From a virus, in IMG/VR virus record IMGVR_UViG_3300033146_001150, positions 1-64,000 of that record: 64,000 nucleotides of DNA. One strand, given 5' to 3'. Positions 5,119 to 63,135 of this stretch are shown piece after piece. Numbering within the stretch: position 1 is the first letter of the stretch; each line of letters opens with the position of its first letter. Made by a program: the position numbers and the translations under genes. The notes beneath the pieces were generated by a model. It worked only from the letters and a program-made list of their open reading frames with translations. It searched no databases and was not told where the DNA came from.

Positions 5119-5850
5119 CTACCAATTACCAAACGGATCATCATTAGGACGTTCAGTTGGATCTGGTTTATATATAACATCAGGTTTCTCTATATCAACA
5201 TCATCACGAACATCAAATAAATCAGAAACTTCATAATATTTTGCAATTGGTGATGCTGACATGGCAGGAGATGTATTAATAGTACTCTCTATTTTATGAG
5301 GTTTAACTATAAGTTCCCAAGAATACTTTTTAGATAGGAAAAACATAGGATCGTCTTCTTTTACTTCAACAATCTCATATAATTTAGAATCAAATATAGT
5401 TTGAATTATATCTCCTATTTGTGGATGATAATCGTTAGTGGTAGCCTTAAAATGTAATTTAGATATAACTACAGAAAAATTATTCATACCCTCAATACCA
5501 AACTTAGACCAAACTTTATCTTCCTTTGGTAGCGGAAAGAATGACATGACTTGCCAATAATCGGTAATCAATCTACCATGATCTTCACCCCAAATTCTAT
5601 CAAACTTAGCGTCGTATGTAGTTTTATAAAAATTCAACTCAACACCAAACATATTATATACTTCCATTTGAAGATGTTGAAATAACTCCCTATCACCCTC
5701 AAATTGATTACTACATATATTACCAAACCGTTTACTTGGTCTAGCATCATAATGTAAGTAATTAAACGCATCACCAGTACATATAACGTGATGACCACTA
5801 GAAGTAGGAGCTTTTAAACTAAATATGCTCGTATTATGTTGAAATATCAT
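5119..5850 (-). CDS. 14: Neck protein, gp14-like (copy 2)
   Basis: This 243-residue protein begins at an ATG after GAGGTGAT. It is clearly homologous to the next gene downstream: VELNFYKTTYDAKFDRIWGEDH, KVWSKFGIEGMN, HPQIGDIIQTIFDSKLYEIVEV, and an identical-style C-terminal tail with DVRDDVDIEKPD and NDDPFGNW. The N-terminal 40 residues differ from copy 1. The family is T4 neck protein gp14, which completes the head and joins it to the tail. Divergence between the two copies suggests an old duplication with split roles, possibly one gp13-like and one gp14-like. That split is inference. Confidence 0.75.
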   Translation of the reverse strand: MIFQHNTSIFSLKAPTSSGHHVICTGDAFNYLHYDARPSKRFGNICSNQFEGDRELFQHLQMEVYNMFGVELNFYKTTYDAKFDRIWGEDHGRLITDYWQVMSFFPLPKEDKVWSKFGIEGMNNFSVVISKLHFKATTNDYHPQIGDIIQTIFDSKLYEIVEVKEDDPMFFLSKKYSWELIVKPHKIESTINTSPAMSASPIAKYYEVSDLFDVRDDVDIEKPDVIYKPDPTERPNDDPFGNW

Positions 5851-40657: not shown

Positions 40658-40730
40658 CCGTGAGTAGTTCAATCGGTTAGAGCACTAGCCTGTGACGCTA
40701 GAAATTTGGATTCGAGTTCCAACTTGCGGA
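40658..40730 (+). tRNA. tRNA-His (GUG), no encoded CCA
   Basis: Acceptor CCGTGAG/CTTGCGG, A73. Anticodon arm CTAGC-CTGTGAC-GCTAG. CCA is not encoded. Flanks ACTAAG (40651-40656) and CTTAGT (40731-40736) pair perfectly and extend the acceptor helix in the precursor. The usual G-1:C73 of tRNA-His is not present. Confidence 0.82.
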
Positions 40731-40797
40731 CTTAGTATTATTTTAATAATTTAAATTTTAACGAGGGTGTGGTGGAATAGGTAGACACTCAAGACTT

Positions 40798-41521
40798 TGA
40801 GATATTTAATGTATGAAAACTGTGTAATATATGGTCCATATACTAGTGATGATGGTAGATTACGTATTTATGTTTCTGGTGATACTATAAATACTACAAT
40901 ATCTTATCCTAAGTATATTATGGAATGTTATATTAATAGGTATTTATTGCCTAATGAAATTGTACACCATATTGATGGTGATGTTTCAAATAATGATATA
41001 TCTAATTTAATTGTACTAGATCGGTCAGAGCATGCTAAATTGCATGCTAACCGATTAATTGAGCAAGAATTTGTATGTCCTTATTGTAATACATCATTTA
41101 TTCTTGTAGGTACTAAATTGAAAAATGCTATAGCGAACAGCAAACGTGGTAAACGTGGACCGTTCTGTTGTAGAAGCTGTGCTGGTAAATATGGAAGATC
41201 TATTCAATTGGGACTTATCTCCCCTATAGATGAAACTATAATTACCCCAACATACATTAATACCATTGAGCGGCTATAATGAAAATTATAGTTAGAATCG
41301 GATGAATTCAGGGAACCCTTATCAGATTATACTGATGGCAATCCTGAGCGAAGCCTTACACGATACTTGTAAGGAACGTGCAGAGACTAGATGGTTTAGC
41401 AGGCGTGCTATGTAATACATCATTAGCGTCCGACATCTAAACAGATTAAGCTGTAGATGATGATATAGTCCAGACCACAAATATACATATTAAGTATAGC
41501 TACGAAAGTAGTAGTGGTATG
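40798..41521 (+). mobile_element. Group I intron with internal HNH endonuclease gene
   Basis: The intron follows U34 of tRNA-Leu and ends in G (41521), as group I introns do. The catalytic core is seen in order: Q-type GGCAATCCTGAGCGAAGCC (41339-41355 region), R-type GTGCAGAGACTAGATGG (41379-41395) and S-type GATATAGTCCAGACC (41462-41476). These form P4, P6, P7 and the G-binding site. The ORF at 40809-41279 is placed upstream of the core, in a peripheral loop near P1 or P2. Boundaries are set by the exon fold and may move by a base. Confidence 0.88.
40809..41279 (+). CDS. HNH homing endonuclease inside the tRNA-Leu intron
   Basis: The 156-residue protein starts at ATG 40809, 11 bases inside the intron; a TTG at 40797 overlaps the splice site and is less likely. 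The HNH motif is VHHIDGDVSNNDISNLIVLD near 52-71 with EHAKLHA following, close to I-HmuI-type and other phage intron enzymes. The C-terminus has a zinc site, CPYC near 88 and CCRSCAGKYG near 121. It should cut intronless tRNA-Leu alleles and spread the intron. No clear ribosome site is seen. Confidence 0.88.
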   Translation: MYENCVIYGPYTSDDGRLRIYVSGDTINTTISYPKYIMECYINRYLLPNEIVHHIDGDVSNNDISNLIVLDRSEHAKLHANRLIEQEFVCPYCNTSFILVGTKLKNAIANSKRGKRGPFCCRSCAGKYGRSIQLGLISPIDETIITPTYINTIERL

Positions 41522-41597
41522 AAAATCTTGTGGGCGTAAGCTCGTGCGGGTTCAAGTCCCGCCACCCTTACCATTTCAACAAAAAAAGAGGAAAAAT

Positions 41598-41856: not shown

Positions 41857-41930
41857 AGCGGGATGTAGTAAGGGTAGCTTGTCAGTCTCATAAGCTGACG
41901 TTGGGGGTTCGAATCCCTCTCCCGCAACCA
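41857..41930 (+). tRNA. Initiator tRNA-fMet (CAU)
   Basis: The 1:72 pair is mismatched (A-A), D-stem A11:U24 is present, and the 3' end CCCGCAACCA equals that of bacterial tRNA-fMet. Anticodon arm TCAGT-CTCATAA-GCTGA. These are the known initiator marks. The three G-C pairs of the anticodon stem are not kept. Confidence 0.8.
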
Positions 41931-52999: not shown

Positions 53000-54781
53000 T
53001 TATATATACATTCTATTTTCGAATTTTATTGTTTGTTGTGGAGCCTCACTATTATTCTCCTTATAAAATCGTTCGACACTACGCAATTTACCTTCTAAAT
53101 CTGGGAGATATGTATATATATTATCAAAAAAGTCTAATATATCATCAACAGACATTTCAGTATCACCATACGCCATCATATACCATTTAACAACCTCAGA
53201 TATTAATTTTTTCGTTGCGTCCACTAATTTTAGCTTATCATGTCTAGATATGTCTTTTATTCCGTGCTTAGTTAATCTGTCTATGGTATGGCGAAGATAT
53301 AAAATAGGTCCTACTGATTTTAATGTTTTATATTTTTCAGCATAGTCTACGCCATTCGACTCTTTATATTCCATAAACTTAGACTGTGCATCAGCCACAG
53401 CTTCCTCCACACCTTCCATACAATCAACGTCTTCATCAGCACAATTTTCAGATACTAGTTCTTTTATTTTATTTAACGACATATCACCTGTTTTGTTATA
53501 TGTATATAATACATATGCCTTCATCAGATAAGGATCAGGATTCCCATCAGATTGAAATACTTCATCTAATATTTCCCATTCATCTAATGTATTCTCAATA
53601 GATCCTAAATCTTCAGTAAATACAACCCCTGGGTTATCTAATATATAATCAGCTAATCGTTCAAATGAAACGTCACTACTATCTAATAATTCAAAATATT
53701 CACCAACATCAGAAACTATATCAGCCTTTATTAAGTCGGCTATAGCATAAGAATCAATACTACCTTCAACCCATTCTTGTACATAATCTATAGCGTCCCC
53801 GCCATCACGTAGAGGATCGGTATGATATATAATATCATCAGCATCAATACCATCTATATCATCAGCAAGGTTATATATTTCACTCACAACATCAAAATGT
53901 AAATTATCATCTATATCATCAGCAGTCCATTCGCTATCATATATCAATTCTGCAACTTCATCGGTCAGTATCTCTTTTCCTCTATCTGATATATAAAGCA
54001 TACCATCTAAAATTTCACCTAATCTAGCGAACGCTTCGTCTCTAACAGCGTCTGGATTATCTTCTTCTGGAAATCCTTTTTCTTCAATCCAATCCAGTAA
54101 TCCAGTACCAGCAAACTCTTCTCTAGGATCAAAAAATTCATTTTCGCAGTTTTTATTTTCAACTGTATGATCTTTACCTTGTTCCCAAAACATTTGCCAT
54201 TTTTTTCTGGTCTTTTTATCATAAATGATATATAAATCTCCGTTAGCGTACATATCGTTATTAAAATAACATACGTTATCGTCTTGATGACCAGTACACC
54301 AAGCACACCCAGACGCATAATACTGAGATGCTTGCATTGTTTTAGGTACTACGACAATATACTCATTGTCGTTATATACAACTTCAGAATTTTTTTCTGC
54401 TAATTTCTTTCGGGCTTTTTCTTTATCTTTTTTAGATAAGAGTAATCCATCTTTTTCTGCATTATCCATAACTTCTATGAATGTTAATAAATCTAATTTA
54501 TTAATGTCTCGGTGTTCTGGTTTTAAATTAGTTTTTAGTCTATCGTATGTTTTTAATAAATTTGATAGTTTTGGTATATCCACAACGTCTAGAGTTTCTT
54601 TATTTTTAATAAGCCAATCTACATAGTTTCCTACTTTATCTAATCCGTTTGATGTTGGGTCTAACTCAACTATAGAATTGAATAAATTCCTATCAAGTTT
54701 ACCATCATAAAATTTATTAAATTTATCATCAGCCGTGATCTCATTGATCATACCTTCTTGTATATACTGAAATATGCTCAT
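53000..54781 (-). CDS. WCT-family head-targeted protein (paralogue 1)
   Basis: The 593-residue protein starts MSIFQYIQEGMINEITADDK (tag, then INE). Residues about 12-220 are shared with three genes at 58608-63135: FNKFYDGKLDRNLF, DPTSNGLDKVGNYVDWL, a basic helix LLSKKDKEKARKKLAEKNSEV, then IVVVPKTMQASQYYASGCAWCTGHQ, GDLYIIYDKKTRKKWQMFWE. The C-terminal 370 residues differ from the paralogues and are acidic and helical. The WCT part resembles a small-ligand or enzyme core but I cannot name it. It is in an operon behind the late box at 55121. Confidence 0.65.
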   Translation of the reverse strand: MSIFQYIQEGMINEITADDKFNKFYDGKLDRNLFNSIVELDPTSNGLDKVGNYVDWLIKNKETLDVVDIPKLSNLLKTYDRLKTNLKPEHRDINKLDLLTFIEVMDNAEKDGLLLSKKDKEKARKKLAEKNSEVVYNDNEYIVVVPKTMQASQYYASGCAWCTGHQDDNVCYFNNDMYANGDLYIIYDKKTRKKWQMFWEQGKDHTVENKNCENEFFDPREEFAGTGLLDWIEEKGFPEEDNPDAVRDEAFARLGEILDGMLYISDRGKEILTDEVAELIYDSEWTADDIDDNLHFDVVSEIYNLADDIDGIDADDIIYHTDPLRDGGDAIDYVQEWVEGSIDSYAIADLIKADIVSDVGEYFELLDSSDVSFERLADYILDNPGVVFTEDLGSIENTLDEWEILDEVFQSDGNPDPYLMKAYVLYTYNKTGDMSLNKIKELVSENCADEDVDCMEGVEEAVADAQSKFMEYKESNGVDYAEKYKTLKSVGPILYLRHTIDRLTKHGIKDISRHDKLKLVDATKKLISEVVKWYMMAYGDTEMSVDDILDFFDNIYTYLPDLEGKLRSVERFYKENNSEAPQQTIKFENRMYI

Positions 54782-58209: not shown

Positions 58210-58611
58210 CTATATATATCGTATTAACTGATTGAAAAACGCAGGGCTACCGATGATGGCTTTTTGTACTATAGGATTGTTAGTTCCTTCGCCATCTAAA
58301 AGCTCTTTCATCCCCAACGGATAATCCATAATTATAGTGTCTCCGTCTATATCACCATTAACTGTGCCGTTACCCTCATTTGGTTGTAATATAATAGTCA
58401 TATCCCTATCTTGGTCTGTGTTAGAAGCATCACTTAAATTGAACGTTGCTCTATACACACCATAATCATTGGGGTCGTCTATAAATGGGTTTGCTGTTTG
58501 ATTGTCAACTAAGGATGTTATATACTCTCGTATTTCATTAGCCATCGCCATTGTTTCCTCAGAAGCCCCTTCAGAAACTAATGATTCATTAATATATTGT
58601 ATTATACTCAT
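58210..58611 (-). CDS. Small head-targeted protein (hypothetical)
   Basis: ATG at 58611 follows GGAGGATATACT and overlaps the stop of the upstream gene; the longer start at 58629 is rejected. The 133-residue product begins MSIIQYINESLVSEGASEE (tag, VSE/G). Then come a helix ETMAMANEIREYITSLVD and a beta-rich part (VYRATFNLSDASNTDQDRDMTIIL, GTVNGDIDGDTIIMDYP). The last gene of the operon from 63135. No function recognised. Confidence 0.6.
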   Translation of the reverse strand: MSIIQYINESLVSEGASEETMAMANEIREYITSLVDNQTANPFIDDPNDYGVYRATFNLSDASNTDQDRDMTIILQPNEGNGTVNGDIDGDTIIMDYPLGMKELLDGEGTNNPIVQKAIIGSPAFFNQLIRYI

Positions 58612-60143
58612 AGTATATCCTCCAGCCATTCTTCATAAGTAGCTTTTAGTTGTTGTTCATATTTTTTGAATCTATTAAATTCTTCTTCACTGATACCTGA
58701 TTCAAGATGTTTATATAAATCATCATGAGCCATCCCAGATAGTCTAGCTGCGATATACACACCATCCAGTGTATTGTCGCCAGTGAAATCATTATCGATT
58801 GCAGTATTGTATACATCCACCCAATCAGTATCTTTAAATTTAGATGCTAAATATGCCACATCATCAGGTGTGATATCAGCACTATGATTTATATAGTTCA
58901 AGAGTGCCATATAAAGATCTGCATAATCAGACGATCCGTCAAAAAATGAATTAATCTCAATATCATCGCCCCGTAATAACAGTTCAATGGTATCTTCTAA
59001 AGTATATCCTTCATCAATAATTGATTCTAATTGATGATAATCAATATCATATACCATTGATGGTATAATATCTTGTTCTATAATATCACTTCCATATACT
59101 TTTTGTGATTGAGAGAATAAGTATTCTAAATCTTCAATTTGATCTGAAAAGAATGCAGGGAATATAACTTCCCAATCACTAATCCCTACATTTTTAGCAA
59201 AGGTAAATGCCTCAATTAATGGTATTGGGTTAAATTCAATATCACCTATATGGTTTGTTACAATACTAATATTATCTGCTGAGTAGTCGGTTTCGTCATT
59301 TAAAAATGTATGAAATTCATTTGTCTGTAATGCAACTGGTAATTCTATATGATTTTCAAGCTCATGTATAGCTTCTTCATATGCAATAAAATTATCTTCT
59401 TCATTATCGTCATAAGTATCACCATGATCTTCCGGAAATCCTTTTTCATTAATCCAATTTAATAAGGCAGTTCCTTCAAACTCTTCTCTTGGTTCAAACT
59501 CCATATTCTTACAATCTTTATATTCTCCGGTATCTTTACCCTGCTCCCAGAACATCTGCCATTTCTGTCTAGTCTTTTTATCATATATGATGTAGATGTC
59601 TCCGTTGACATACAGATCATTATTAAAATAGCATGCGTCATCGTTCTGATGTCCAGTACACCAAGCACACCCAGCAGCATAGTATTGGGACGCTTGCATT
59701 GTTTTAGGTACTACCACTATATGAGTGTCGTCATTATAAACAACTTCAGAATTCTCTTCAGCTAACTTTTTTCTAGCTCTCTCTTTATCCTTTTTAGACA
59801 ACAACACTCCATTTTTTTCAGCATCGTTCATTATAGATATAAATTTAGGTATATCCATTTTATTAATATCTCTATTATCAGGATCTAATTTTGTTTTTTG
59901 TTTATCAAATATTGATAACATTTTACTAAATTTATCAGGATCTATTACATCTAAGCTATCTTTATTTTTCAATAACCAGTCAACATAGTTTCCTACTTTA
60001 GAATCTCCATTTGACGTAGGATCTAAGTTTAATGCCAAATCAAATATATCACGATCAATCTTACCATCATAAAATTGATTGAATTTATCATCTGCGGTTA
60101 TTTCATTAAGTAATGCTTCTTTTAAATATTGTAATACGCTCAT
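58608..60143 (-). CDS. WCT-family head-targeted protein (paralogue 2)
   Basis: The 511-residue protein starts MSVLQYLKEALLNEITADDK. The first 225 residues are nearly the same as in the next gene upstream, with the DPTSNGDSKVGNYVDWLL, LLSKKDKERARKKLAEENSEV, VVVPKTMQASQYYAAGCAWCTGHQ and KWQMFWEQGKDTGEYKDC blocks. The rest (about 285 residues) differs and is acidic and helical. The tag plus a LLNE/I site suggests cleavage after head entry. It ends overlapping the small gene at 58611. Confidence 0.65.
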   Translation of the reverse strand: MSVLQYLKEALLNEITADDKFNQFYDGKIDRDIFDLALNLDPTSNGDSKVGNYVDWLLKNKDSLDVIDPDKFSKMLSIFDKQKTKLDPDNRDINKMDIPKFISIMNDAEKNGVLLSKKDKERARKKLAEENSEVVYNDDTHIVVVPKTMQASQYYAAGCAWCTGHQNDDACYFNNDLYVNGDIYIIYDKKTRQKWQMFWEQGKDTGEYKDCKNMEFEPREEFEGTALLNWINEKGFPEDHGDTYDDNEEDNFIAYEEAIHELENHIELPVALQTNEFHTFLNDETDYSADNISIVTNHIGDIEFNPIPLIEAFTFAKNVGISDWEVIFPAFFSDQIEDLEYLFSQSQKVYGSDIIEQDIIPSMVYDIDYHQLESIIDEGYTLEDTIELLLRGDDIEINSFFDGSSDYADLYMALLNYINHSADITPDDVAYLASKFKDTDWVDVYNTAIDNDFTGDNTLDGVYIAARLSGMAHDDLYKHLESGISEEEFNRFKKYEQQLKATYEEWLEDIL

Positions 60144-60144
60144 A

Positions 60145-61659
60145 CTAATAAGCCTTTCCTAGAAATCTATCTTCATAAGAGTCTATATCATTTATATTAA
60201 ATCCTTTAGAATTTTTCAATTCATCAATCAAATCTTCTTTAGATTTTCCAATAGTTCTACCAAATTGATATAACATGCTTATATCTTCAGGATCAACTAA
60301 ATTATTAGCTATTAACACCATCCACATATGAGCTAGATTGATATTTGATAAATATGTTATAGCATCTTCAAGTTCATCTTCAGATAATACACCATCATTA
60401 ATAAATTCAATAAGAGCTAAATACAAATCAGCATTATGCAATTCCCCACCAGTAAGGAAATTTTCAACATCATCATTATTATAATTTAGTAGCATAGTTA
60501 TTATGTCCTGAAGTCTAAATCCTATATCATATATAGCATTTATCACATTAGAATCAACATACTCTAATAATTCTGGTATCAACGTATTCAGCATATCAGT
60601 ATAGTATTCTACGTTTGCGGTTTCATTAAAGAAATGTTCTAATTTAGTTATATCATTAGAAAAGAATTCGGGAAATACAGATTGCCATGCCTCTGCTGGT
60701 GCTTTAATATCTTTCATAAATTGAAATAAATCAATTAATGTACCTCGGTCATATTTAACGAATCCTATATTGCTGATGTCTGGGTGATAATTCTGAGCCG
60801 AATGATTAGTATTATCTCCGAAAAATTCAAAGAACTGATCCGTTCTCAATATACGAGGAAGTTCAATGGATTCCATAAAGTCATCAAGAGCTTGTTCATA
60901 ATTCTCGTGTTGATCTTCTTCAGCTGCATAGGTATCGCCATGTTCTTCCGGAAATCCTTGCTCATTAATCCAATTTAATAAATCCGTATCCTTAAACTCT
61001 TCTCTTGGCTCAAACTCTATATTCTTACAATCTTTATATTCACCAACATCTTTACCCTGTTCCCAAAACAGCTGCCATTTATTTCTTGTTTTTTTGTCGT
61101 ATATAATGTAGATGTCTCCGTTGACATACATATCATTATCAAAATAACATACATTATCATCCTGGTGTCCTGTGCACCACGCACACCCAGCCGCATAGTA
61201 TTGGGACGCTTGCATCGTTTTAGGGACCACAACTATGTGTTTATCATCATTATAAACAACCTCAGAGTTCTCCTCAGCTAATTTCTTTCTAGCTCTCTCT
61301 TTATCTTTCTTAGATAAAAGAATTCCATCCTTCTCGGCTTTATTCATAACTGATATGAATTTAGGTATATCCATTTTATTAATATCTCTATTATCAGGAT
61401 CTAATTTTGTTTTCTGCTTATCGAAAATAGATAGCATCTTACTGAATTTATCAGAATCAATTATATCTAAACTATCTTTATTTTTCAATAACCAATCAAC
61501 ATAATTACCTACTTTGTAATTACCATTAGACGTTGGATCAAGTTCGAGTGCTTGATCGAATATTTCACGATCAAGCTTACCATCATAGAATTTATTATAT
61601 TTATCATCAGCAGTAATCTCATTAATTAATACCTCTTTTAAATACTGTAATACACTCAT
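60145..61659 (-). CDS. WCT-family head-targeted protein (paralogue 3)
   Basis: The 504-residue protein starts MSVLQYLKEVLINEITADDK and is the closest relative of the gene at 58608 over residues 1-260. Shared features include AAGCAWCTGHQDDNVCYFDND, GDIYIIYDKKTRNKWQLF and FPEEHGDTYAAEE. The C-terminal half is again different (FFNETANVEYYTDMLNTLIPEL, YLSNINLAHMWMVLIANN). Pattern: constant N-terminal module, variable C-terminal module. One base separates it from the downstream gene. Confidence 0.65.
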   Translation of the reverse strand: MSVLQYLKEVLINEITADDKYNKFYDGKLDREIFDQALELDPTSNGNYKVGNYVDWLLKNKDSLDIIDSDKFSKMLSIFDKQKTKLDPDNRDINKMDIPKFISVMNKAEKDGILLSKKDKERARKKLAEENSEVVYNDDKHIVVVPKTMQASQYYAAGCAWCTGHQDDNVCYFDNDMYVNGDIYIIYDKKTRNKWQLFWEQGKDVGEYKDCKNIEFEPREEFKDTDLLNWINEQGFPEEHGDTYAAEEDQHENYEQALDDFMESIELPRILRTDQFFEFFGDNTNHSAQNYHPDISNIGFVKYDRGTLIDLFQFMKDIKAPAEAWQSVFPEFFSNDITKLEHFFNETANVEYYTDMLNTLIPELLEYVDSNVINAIYDIGFRLQDIITMLLNYNNDDVENFLTGGELHNADLYLALIEFINDGVLSEDELEDAITYLSNINLAHMWMVLIANNLVDPEDISMLYQFGRTIGKSKEDLIDELKNSKGFNINDIDSYEDRFLGKAY

Positions 61660-61668
61660 AGAGTCCCC

Positions 61669-63135
61669 TTAAATATCAGACATTCTTAATTGAGGATTCT
61701 CATCTCTAGTTTCTGAATCATCATTTTTTATTTTTATTTTCTGTAGATCATCTTCTAATCCATTTAAGAATTCTTCTATATCATCTCCAGGAACTCCACG
61801 TAAATTAGTGATTTTAGATAAAAGATCACCAAATGCATAGATAATATCATCTATACTATCATCGATATCGTTACTATGTGCAGTATACCATGCTCGTATG
61901 ACATCAGCACCTTCGTCAGCGTCTCCATATTTATGTTCTGTGCTGTATATGGTATCTAATATATCATGTATTGTTGAGTCTGCATCAAATAAACGGGGCT
62001 GATCTGCTAAAAAGTCTGGATTGTTATCTAACACTTCAGATAAATCCACATCATACCCAGCAACTGATATTGCTGATGTTATAACTGAAGGGTTTTCTAT
62101 GTCAATTAAATGATTACTTTTCATTTCATCTAATATGCCTTCAGCTGAATCTAATATCGTAGAGGCTTCTTCATTTAAAAAGCGTGCCGCAGTATCATTA
62201 TACTCTTCAGTTATTCGTTCAACTTCATCGTTATAGTCTTCATCGCCTTCACTAACTTCGAGGTGTTGTTCTAAATAATCTTCCAATTCTCCATAATAAT
62301 CAATGAACATTTCAAGTTTATAATTAAGATGGTCTCGTAATTCAGCAGCTACCTGATTTTGTAACGCATCATTGCCACCAAAATGATCTTTATGGTATTC
62401 AGCAACATTACTCATAATAGCATCTAATCCAGCTTCTTCAGGAAATTCATTTTCATCAATCCATTTTAATAAATCAGTCCCGGCAAATACTTTCCATGGA
62501 TCGAATGGGGAATTGTTGAATGTTTTATATTCAGGACTTCTCCCAGCACCATTAGGTTTAAACATTTGCCACATTTCTTTTGTTTTATTATTTCTGATTA
62601 TGTATAAATCTCCATTTTCACCATAATGATCAAACATACATCTATCATCTTGATATGCAGTACACCAAGCAGAACCCTTCCCCATAAATTGAGAAGCCTC
62701 TTTTGTTTTTGGTGATATTACAATGAAATCATCATCTTTATATACTATTTCAGATTCTTTAAATGCTTTTTGTTCTCTAGCTTTTGCTCTATCTTTTTTA
62801 GATAGTAATACGCCAGATTCTTCGGCATCTTTCATTACTGATACAAATTTCTTATAATCCATCTTATTGATATCTCTATCAGCTGGATCTAATTTAGTTT
62901 TTAATCTATGGAAAGTTTGTAGTAATGATGTAGTGTCGTCATTAATAGCATCGGGATTCAATAATAACCAGTCTACATAGTCACCAACCTTATTATCTCC
63001 TTTTGATGTTGGATCAGTATCAACCGCCTTATCAAAAGTATCTCTATCAATTTTTCCATCATAGAATTTATTAAATTTTTCGTCTGCTGTTATCTCGTTA
63101 AGCAGAGCTTCCTGTAGATATTGGATAATGCTCAT
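61669..63135 (-). CDS. WCT-family head-targeted protein (paralogue 4)
   Basis: The 488-residue protein starts MSIIQYLQEALLNEITADEK, with a late box at 63169 and CGGAGTATAT before the ATG. The N-terminal module is more diverged than in paralogues 2 and 3: VISPKTKEASQFMGKGSAWCTAYQDD, GDLYIIRNNKTKEMWQMFK. WCT is kept but the CAWCTGH cysteine and histidine are not. The C-terminal part is very acidic (EVSEGDEDYNDEVERITEEY). First gene of the operon running to 58210. Confidence 0.65.
   Translation of the reverse strand: MSIIQYLQEALLNEITADEKFNKFYDGKIDRDTFDKAVDTDPTSKGDNKVGDYVDWLLLNPDAINDDTTSLLQTFHRLKTKLDPADRDINKMDYKKFVSVMKDAEESGVLLSKKDRAKAREQKAFKESEIVYKDDDFIVISPKTKEASQFMGKGSAWCTAYQDDRCMFDHYGENGDLYIIRNNKTKEMWQMFKPNGAGRSPEYKTFNNSPFDPWKVFAGTDLLKWIDENEFPEEAGLDAIMSNVAEYHKDHFGGNDALQNQVAAELRDHLNYKLEMFIDYYGELEDYLEQHLEVSEGDEDYNDEVERITEEYNDTAARFLNEEASTILDSAEGILDEMKSNHLIDIENPSVITSAISVAGYDVDLSEVLDNNPDFLADQPRLFDADSTIHDILDTIYSTEHKYGDADEGADVIRAWYTAHSNDIDDSIDDIIYAFGDLLSKITNLRGVPGDDIEEFLNGLEDDLQKIKIKNDDSETRDENPQLRMSDI

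What the first reader, a model, noticed from the sequence alone, without database searches (positions are those of the whole stretch)
40763..41573. Group I intron with HNH gene in a phage tRNA-Leu(UAA), at the cyanobacterial insertion site
The joined exons make a good tRNA-Leu(UAA). The insertion lies between U34 and A35, as in the ancient cyanobacterial and plastid tRNA-Leu intron. Q, R and S core elements of a group I intron are readable and the intron ends in G. An HNH homing endonuclease ORF is included, unlike most cyanobacterial copies. Phage tRNA introns are rare, and this gives a vehicle for moving the intron between lineages.
Basis: partly seen in the sequence, partly recalled or inferred. 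Interest (0 to 1): 0.8.

Follow-up and report, generated by a model that had tools for sequence, protein, structure and literature searches.

The report
Self-splicing intron in phage tRNA-Leu
A virus of bacteria carries a gene for the transfer RNA that reads the leucine codon UUA, and that gene is interrupted by a mobile self-splicing RNA; the interruption sits exactly where cyanobacteria and chloroplasts carry one, but this copy is of a phage type, and dozens of similar copies lie unrecognised in other phage tRNA genes.

Summary
Exons 40763-40797 and 41522-41573 join into an 87-nt tRNA-Leu(UAA) ending in CCA. The 724-nt insert between U34 and A35 holds a group I core (Rfam 92 bits, E 2.7e-22; 97% of helix cells paired across 24 relatives, 20 of 35 pairs changed on both sides) and an HNH gene in its P1 loop.

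The site is the cyanobacterial one. The ribozyme, however, has P7.1/P7.2 hairpins like phage (IA2-type) introns, and its nearest relatives are phage introns. Plastid trnL introns have a compact core and do not join it, although the tree test cannot exclude that.

It is not rare. One 17-nt motif in IMG/VR recovers 44 split tRNAs (about 8% background): Leu(UAA), Arg(UCU), Lys(UUU), Ile(UAU) and UCA, nearly all cut after U34, with at least two ribozyme architectures. Some carry PD-(D/E)XK genes, others HNH genes. Cultured phage Atu_ph07 has an unannotated copy. Bases beside the guide GAG pair with the anticodon.

Best reading: a phage-type homing intron that independently reached the cyanobacterial site. 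Splicing and homing are inferred, not shown. Published prior: "enigmatic" introns in Lak phage tRNAs.

The parts
40763..40797 (+). 5' exon of tRNA-Leu(UAA), positions 1-34
   Evidence: ARAGORN intron mode; acceptor, D and anticodon stems pair with the 3' exon
40798..41521 (+). group I intron, 724 nt, between U34 and A35; ends in G
   Evidence: boundary set by U at -1 and terminal G
41522..41573 (+). 3' exon of tRNA-Leu(UAA), including long variable arm, A73 and CCA
40809..41279 (+). HNH homing endonuclease ORF (156 aa from ATG; in-frame TTG at 40797 gives 160 aa), HNH_3 domain plus C-terminal Cys4 motif
   Evidence: AF2 model pLDDT 82.7 whose best PDB match is I-HmuI
40806..40815 (+). 5' arm of a 10-bp stem that closes the P1 loop around the ORF; contains the ATG at 40809
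   Evidence: perfect inverted repeat; present in the minimum-energy fold; 10-bp repeats do occur by chance here, so tentative
41251..41260 (+). 3' arm of that stem
41266..41270 (+). internal guide: UU (P10, pairs with A35-A36) and GAG (P1, pairs with C32-U33-U34)
   Evidence: sequence; same UUGAG/UUUGAG in other tRNA-Leu introns and plastid trnL
41274..41291 (+). P2 hairpin CUAUAAU-GAAA-AUUAUAG (ORF stop codon lies in its 5' strand)
   Evidence: sequence
41292..41471 (+). catalytic core P3 (41299-41304/41427-41432), P4-P6, P7 (41385-41389/41466-41470), P8 (41434-41438/41455-41459)
   Evidence: Rfam alignment; covariation
41390..41421 (+). P7.1 (41390-41393/41418-41421) and P7.2 (41397-41401/41406-41410), the IA-type insertion between P7 and P3
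   Evidence: P7.1: 4 of 4 pairs with double changes, 95.8% paired; P7.2 read by eye
41474..41518 (+). P9 region, ACCAC/GUGGU outer stem with hairpins
   Evidence: sequence; the 3'-end motif GATATAGTCCAGACCAC is shared with the other phage tRNA introns

Best explanation
This is a phage-lineage (IA2-type) self-splicing group I intron with its own HNH homing endonuclease, lodged in the anticodon loop of the phage's only detected leucine tRNA. Splicing: the guide GAG (41268-41270) pairs with C32-U33-U34 to form P1, GTP attacks after U34, then U34 attacks after the terminal G. The exons join into a tRNA-Leu(UAA) that reads UUA, which makes up 55% of the leucine codons in this genome. The exons can keep the anticodon-stem pairing throughout. 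Mobility: the HNH protein is made from the unspliced transcript, cuts intronless tRNA-Leu(UAA) genes in co-infecting phages within the conserved anticodon arm, and break repair copies the intron in. The cyanobacterial site is shared because a CUU-reading guide and a conserved anticodon arm favour it, not because of common descent. Shown by sequence: exons, core, guide, HNH domain, relatives at the same site in other phages. Inferred: splicing, GTP use, DNA cleavage, homing.
For: Rfam E 2.7e-22. Covariation in P3-P8 including P7.1. The joined exons make a complete tRNA. There is no other Leu tRNA in the record, and TTA is 773 of 1400 Leu codons. In the core tree the window joins tRNA-Leu introns L155 and L243 inside the P7.1/P7.2 phage set. 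A homologous HNH (phmmer 1.6e-41) lies in the P1 loop at the same site in another phage, L213. The base 5' of the guide GAG pairs with position 35 in 26 of 28 tRNA introns with an identified guide, across five anticodons, and in four of these the second base mostly pairs with position 36. Intronless tRNA-Leu(UAA) genes with the same anticodon arm occur in 30 viral contigs. Zero of 399 Pseudomonadota genomes hold the 3' motif.
Against: No RNA data. No close relative of this phage with an empty site was found; the best intronless tRNA matches score 69 of 87. Branch support for the window+L155+L243 group is moderate (83/77). The AU test does not reject window + plastid (p 0.21), probably because of the long plastid branch. 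Only plastid trnL introns, not cyanobacterial ones, were available as IC3 comparators. The HNH target was not tested.
Confidence: 0.85

Rival explanations
1. The intron descends from, or gave rise to, the cyanobacterial/plastid tRNA-Leu intron, carried by phage transfer.
For: Same gene, same phosphodiester bond, same UUGAG guide. The DNA polymerase of the phage is slightly nearest to cyanophages (32%). The AU test does not reject a sister relation (p 0.21).
Against: P7.1/P7.2 present here and absent in plastid trnL. Nearest rows are phage introns up to 77% identical, the plastid branch is 1.39 changes per column long, and the wider window clade + plastid is near rejection (p 0.054). All Leu introns as one clade is rejected (p 1.2e-5). 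The shared guide is dictated by the CUU|AA target.
Confidence: 0.07
2. A degenerate intron that no longer splices, so that the tRNA-Leu gene is dead and the HNH gene is the only active part.
For: P1 has only 3 exon pairs. The HNH ORF overlaps the guide and P2, so coding could constrain the ribozyme.
Against: All catalytic helices are intact. Exon stems and CCA are intact. UUA is the dominant Leu codon. A three-pair CUU:GAG P1 is the same arrangement as in plastid trnL.
Confidence: 0.06
3. The HNH gene is a freestanding invader of the intron that homes by itself, and the intron is immobile.
For: Short ORF-less copies are the majority at this and other tRNA sites. Phage TH47 has a related HNH ORF directly downstream of an ORF-less intron in its tRNA-CAU.
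Against: A homologous HNH sits in the same P1 loop at the same site in L213. The ORF end is fused to the guide sequence in both (peptide IER = AUUGAGCGG).
Confidence: 0.1

Closest known systems
[quoted passage not shown]
   Same: Same tRNA, same insertion point U34^A35, same 3-bp CUU:GAG P1 and UU P10 bases, anticodon stem kept paired
   Different: This one has P7.1/P7.2 (IA2-type), groups with phage introns, and carries an HNH gene in P1
Phage IA2-type introns in protein genes (Vibrio terminase, Staphylococcus tail-tube introns)
   Same: Core sequence and P7.1/P7.2 architecture; BLASTN hits to the core; HNH or other nuclease cargo is common
   Different: Host gene is a tRNA, and the guide is matched to an anticodon loop
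tRNA-CAU introns of Klebsiella phage Muenster and Escherichia phage TH47 (unannotated, seen here)
   Same: 77-79% identical core, in a phage tRNA cluster; TH47 has a related HNH ORF next to it
   Different: Inserted after position 36 and without an internal ORF
Introns in Lak megaphage tRNAs (Devoto et al. 2019, PMC6784885)
   Same: Introns in phage tRNA genes
   Different: Described as enigmatic; the main text does not call them group I; named there in tRNA-Thr(TGT) and tRNA-Tyr(GTA)
I-SspI in the cyanobacterial tRNA-fMet intron (PD-(D/E)XK homing endonuclease; from general knowledge)
   Same: tRNA anticodon-loop group I intron with nuclease; phage UCA and Arg(UCU) introns here carry the PDDEXK_5 family
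   Different: The window intron carries an HNH nuclease instead

Membership tests
Group I intron | Conserved core P3-P8 with P7 guanosine site | tested here: met
   Rfam 92 bits, E 2.7e-22; covariation in the main helices
Group I intron | P1 with U-G at the 5' splice site and terminal G | tested here: met
   U40797-G41268 in P1; intron ends G41521
Group I intron | GTP-dependent self-splicing | not testable with these tools
   needs RNA
Phage IA2-type subgroup | P7.1 and P7.2 between P7 and P3 | tested here: met
   P7.1 95.8% paired, all 4 pairs with double changes over 24 introns; P7.2 stem read by eye
Phage IA2-type subgroup | Groups with phage introns in a core tree | tested here: met
   window with L155 and L243, support 83/77; highest identity 77% to L081, an intron in a phage tRNA
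Cyanobacterial/plastid tRNA-Leu IC3 intron | Insertion between U34 and A35 of tRNA-Leu(UAA) | tested here: met
Cyanobacterial/plastid tRNA-Leu IC3 intron | Compact core without P7.1/P7.2 | tested here: not met
   37 nt with two hairpins separate P7 and P3 here; only about 3 nt in plastid trnL L247/L248
Cyanobacterial/plastid tRNA-Leu IC3 intron | Common descent in a core tree | tested here: inconclusive
   not grouped in the best tree, but the sister relation is not rejected (p 0.21); no cyanobacterial sequence could be fetched
HNH homing endonuclease (HNH_3) | HNH domain with catalytic H, N, H | tested here: met
   Pfam PF13392 33.3 bits against cut-off 24.8; invariant H54, N66, H75; best fold match I-HmuI at E 0.04
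HNH homing endonuclease (HNH_3) | Cuts the intronless allele at the insertion site | not testable with these tools
   needs protein

The most novel reading that the evidence does not exclude
Phages harbour a large, mostly unannotated guild of tRNA group I introns whose guides read the wobble base and neighbouring anticodon bases. They have repeatedly invaded U34 anticodon loops (Leu, Arg, Lys, Ile, UGA-reading) with several ribozyme lineages and exchangeable HNH or PD-(D/E)XK nucleases, and they are a standing reservoir from which cellular tRNA introns can be drawn.
Probability: 0.35. Interest if true: 0.8.

Novelty: new variant of a known kind. Interest (0 to 1): 0.62.

Why it matters
A 2014 review states that all phage introns then known lay in protein-coding genes despite the many phage tRNA genes (PMC3984707). 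A 2019 paper reported introns in Lak phage tRNAs, called them enigmatic, and does not name them group I in its main text (PMC6784885). Here a covarying group I core, an HNH gene and a complete tRNA are shown together, with dozens of relatives in phage tRNAs. Standard tRNA finders miss such genes, so phage tRNA repertoires are undercounted. The same phosphodiester bond holds phage introns of at least two architectures and the plastid intron, which makes site convergence and the role of phages in tRNA-intron history testable. A cultured phage (Atu_ph07) offers a bench system.

Tried and rejected
Megablast of window 1-25000 against phages: no match. PDB sequence searches with the HNH and a PDDEXK protein: none. 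NCBIfam for the HNH: none. Rejected: tRNA-Phe(GAA), ARAGORN's label, caused by a one-base boundary ambiguity and excluded by the terminal-G rule and the long variable arm. Rejected: archaeal-type bulge-helix-bulge intron (size and ribozyme core). The P1-loop stem alone is not significant, since other 10-bp repeats occur in the same AT-rich stretch. The split-tRNA search has a background of about 8% (18 of 220 shuffled, 16 of 220 cross-isotype), so a few of the 44 may be false (L223 for example). An earlier automatic boundary for the window itself (tRNA-Ser) was one of two alternatives and was discarded in favour of the Leu one.

Full report
WHAT IS THERE. The window is positions 1-64000 of a 68,594-base virus record with a T4-like replication module. 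Its DNA polymerase is at best about 32% identical to any listed phage in the collection, and 57-61% identical to five IMG/VR contigs. The host is unknown. Fifteen intact tRNAs lie between 35009 and 41930. Between tRNA-His (40658-40731) and tRNA-Met (41857-41930) ARAGORN in intron mode finds a sixteenth, 40763-41573, with a 724-nt intron. By the group I rule the 5' exon ends in U34 and the intron in G41521. The product is an 87-nt tRNA-Leu(UAA) with A73 and encoded CCA. No other leucine tRNA is in the record, and TTA is 773 of 1400 leucine codons.

THE RIBOZYME. Rfam Intron_gpI matches 41248-41494 with 92 bits, E 2.7e-22. I aligned the core with 23 relatives and tested a structure written down for P3, P4, P5, P6, P6a, P7, P7.1 and P8. 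97.1% of cells pair, 20 of 35 pairs have double changes, and sliding the partners by 1-3 columns drops pairing to 28-38%. P7.1 (GAUG/CAUC, GGUG/CACC and others) covaries in all four pairs. P7.1 and P7.2 between P7 and P3 are the mark of IA-type introns (general knowledge), and IA2 is the subgroup traditionally associated with phages (PMC11878797). The plastid trnL introns recovered here (L247, L248) have only about 3 nt at that place.

THE GUIDE. GAG at 41268-41270 pairs with C32-U33-U34, and UU at 41266-41267 can pair with A35-A36 (P10). The anticodon stem can stay paired, as is required for the Anabaena intron (Zaug 1993, title cited in PMC3984707). The other tRNA-Leu introns cut at U34, phage and plastid, have UUGAG or UUUGAG. 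In introns of other tRNAs the bases before GAG change with the anticodon: AA for Lys(UUU), GU for Ile(UAU), UG in most UCA introns, G before GAG for Arg(UCU). The first base pairs with position 35 in 26 of 28 introns with an identified guide. Near relatives are not independent, but five anticodon classes agree.

THE GENE. The HNH ORF runs from ATG 40809 to 41279 inside the P1 loop. A perfect 10-bp inverted repeat (40806-40815/41251-41260) closes that loop and contains the ATG, which suggests, without proof, that folding hides the start codon. The last codons AUU GAG CGG (Ile-Glu-Arg) are the guide itself. Pfam HNH_3 is above its cut-off, the catalytic H, N and H are invariant among relatives, a C-terminal Cys4 motif follows, and the AF2 model (pLDDT 82.7) matches I-HmuI best, weakly. 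In L213, from another phage, the same site carries a 704-nt intron with a homologous HNH in the same loop (phmmer 1.6e-41; the peptide IER is shared).

IT IS ONE OF MANY. Scanning IMG/VR for the 3'-end motif GATATAGTCCAGACCAC gives 79 stretches. A joined-exon test of them split tRNAs (the window included as L001), about 35 distinct: Leu(UAA), Arg(UCU), Lys(UUU), Ile(UAU) and UCA, nearly all cut after U34 and a few after U33. Controls give 7-9% false calls. Of sixteen such loci scanned with Rfam, nine exceed the group I cut-off (L155, L243, L171, L175, L176, L178, L235, L213, L195) and L168 reaches 53.1 bits in a separate scan; the other six fall below it. Introns in UCA tRNAs (L208, L227) and one in an Arg tRNA (L206) carry the PDDEXK_5 nuclease family. 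Among deposited phages, Agrobacterium phage Atu_ph07 and a 735-kb uncultured phage have tRNA-Leu(UAA) introns, and Klebsiella and Escherichia jumbo phages have tRNA-CAU introns after position 36. None of these split tRNAs is annotated in the records. The motif was absent from 399 Pseudomonadota genomes.

ORIGIN. In a core tree the window joins tRNA-Leu introns L155 and L243 (83/77) within the P7.1/P7.2 phage set, while compact tRNA-Leu introns and plastid trnL fall elsewhere. All Leu introns as one clade is rejected (p 1.2e-5), phage Leu introns alone as one clade is rejected (p 1.2e-7), and compact Leu plus plastid is rejected (p 0.003). Window plus plastid is not rejected (p 0.21), so for this one pair I rely on architecture. 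The site was therefore reached more than once.

HOW IT WORKS. Shown by sequence: exons, core, guide, HNH domain, conserved target. Inferred: splicing gives the tRNA that reads UUA, and the HNH protein spreads the intron to intronless tRNA-Leu(UAA) genes, whose anticodon arm is nearly identical in 30 viral contigs.

NOVELTY. In the papers that could be read, a 2014 review says that all phage introns then known were in protein genes (PMC3984707). Devoto 2019 reports introns in Lak phage tRNAs as unprecedented and enigmatic, without calling them group I in the main text (PMC6784885). A 2026 survey repeats this for jumbo phages (PMC13037316). I class this as a new variant of a known kind. Subscription literature and supplements could not be checked.

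Noticed in passing
L005 1438-1730 (Klebsiella phage Muenster) and L006 1422-1727 (Escherichia phage TH47): Unannotated tRNA-CAU genes split after position 36 by ORF-less group I introns of 104 and 100 Rfam bits; in TH47 an HNH ORF resembling the window's lies directly downstream (L006 1746-2450).
   Followed up: partly
L288 1499-1860 (Agrobacterium phage Atu_ph07, MF403008): A cultured jumbo phage has an intron-bearing tRNA-Leu(UAA); the record annotates a hypothetical protein over its 3' part instead.
   Followed up: yes
L208, L218, L227, L234: tRNAs with anticodon UCA (predicted to read UGA) carry introns after U34; L208 and L227 encode PD-(D/E)XK (PDDEXK_5) nucleases in the P1 loop, in L208 behind an AAGGAG sequence.
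   Followed up: partly
L151, L154, L158: tRNA-Thr(UGU) genes with introns of about 240 nt after position 36 and the same group I core motif; the enigmatic tRNA-Thr introns of Lak phages may be of this kind.
   Followed up: no
L168 intron (reverse-strand positions 5306-5595): An insert in the intron of a tRNA-Leu looks tRNA-like (7-bp acceptor-like stem, TTCGATC loop) but neither ARAGORN nor Rfam calls that insert a tRNA.
   Followed up: partly
window 53000-54781, 58608-60143, 60145-61659, 61669-63135 (- strand): Four long ORFs of unknown function share a similar start (MS(I/V)..QY(I/L)..NEITAD(D/E)KFNxFYDGK), so they look like paralogues.
   Followed up: no
L247, L248: Plastid-like trnL introns in MAGs labelled Lactobacillus and Clostridia, probably chloroplast contamination.
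   Followed up: no
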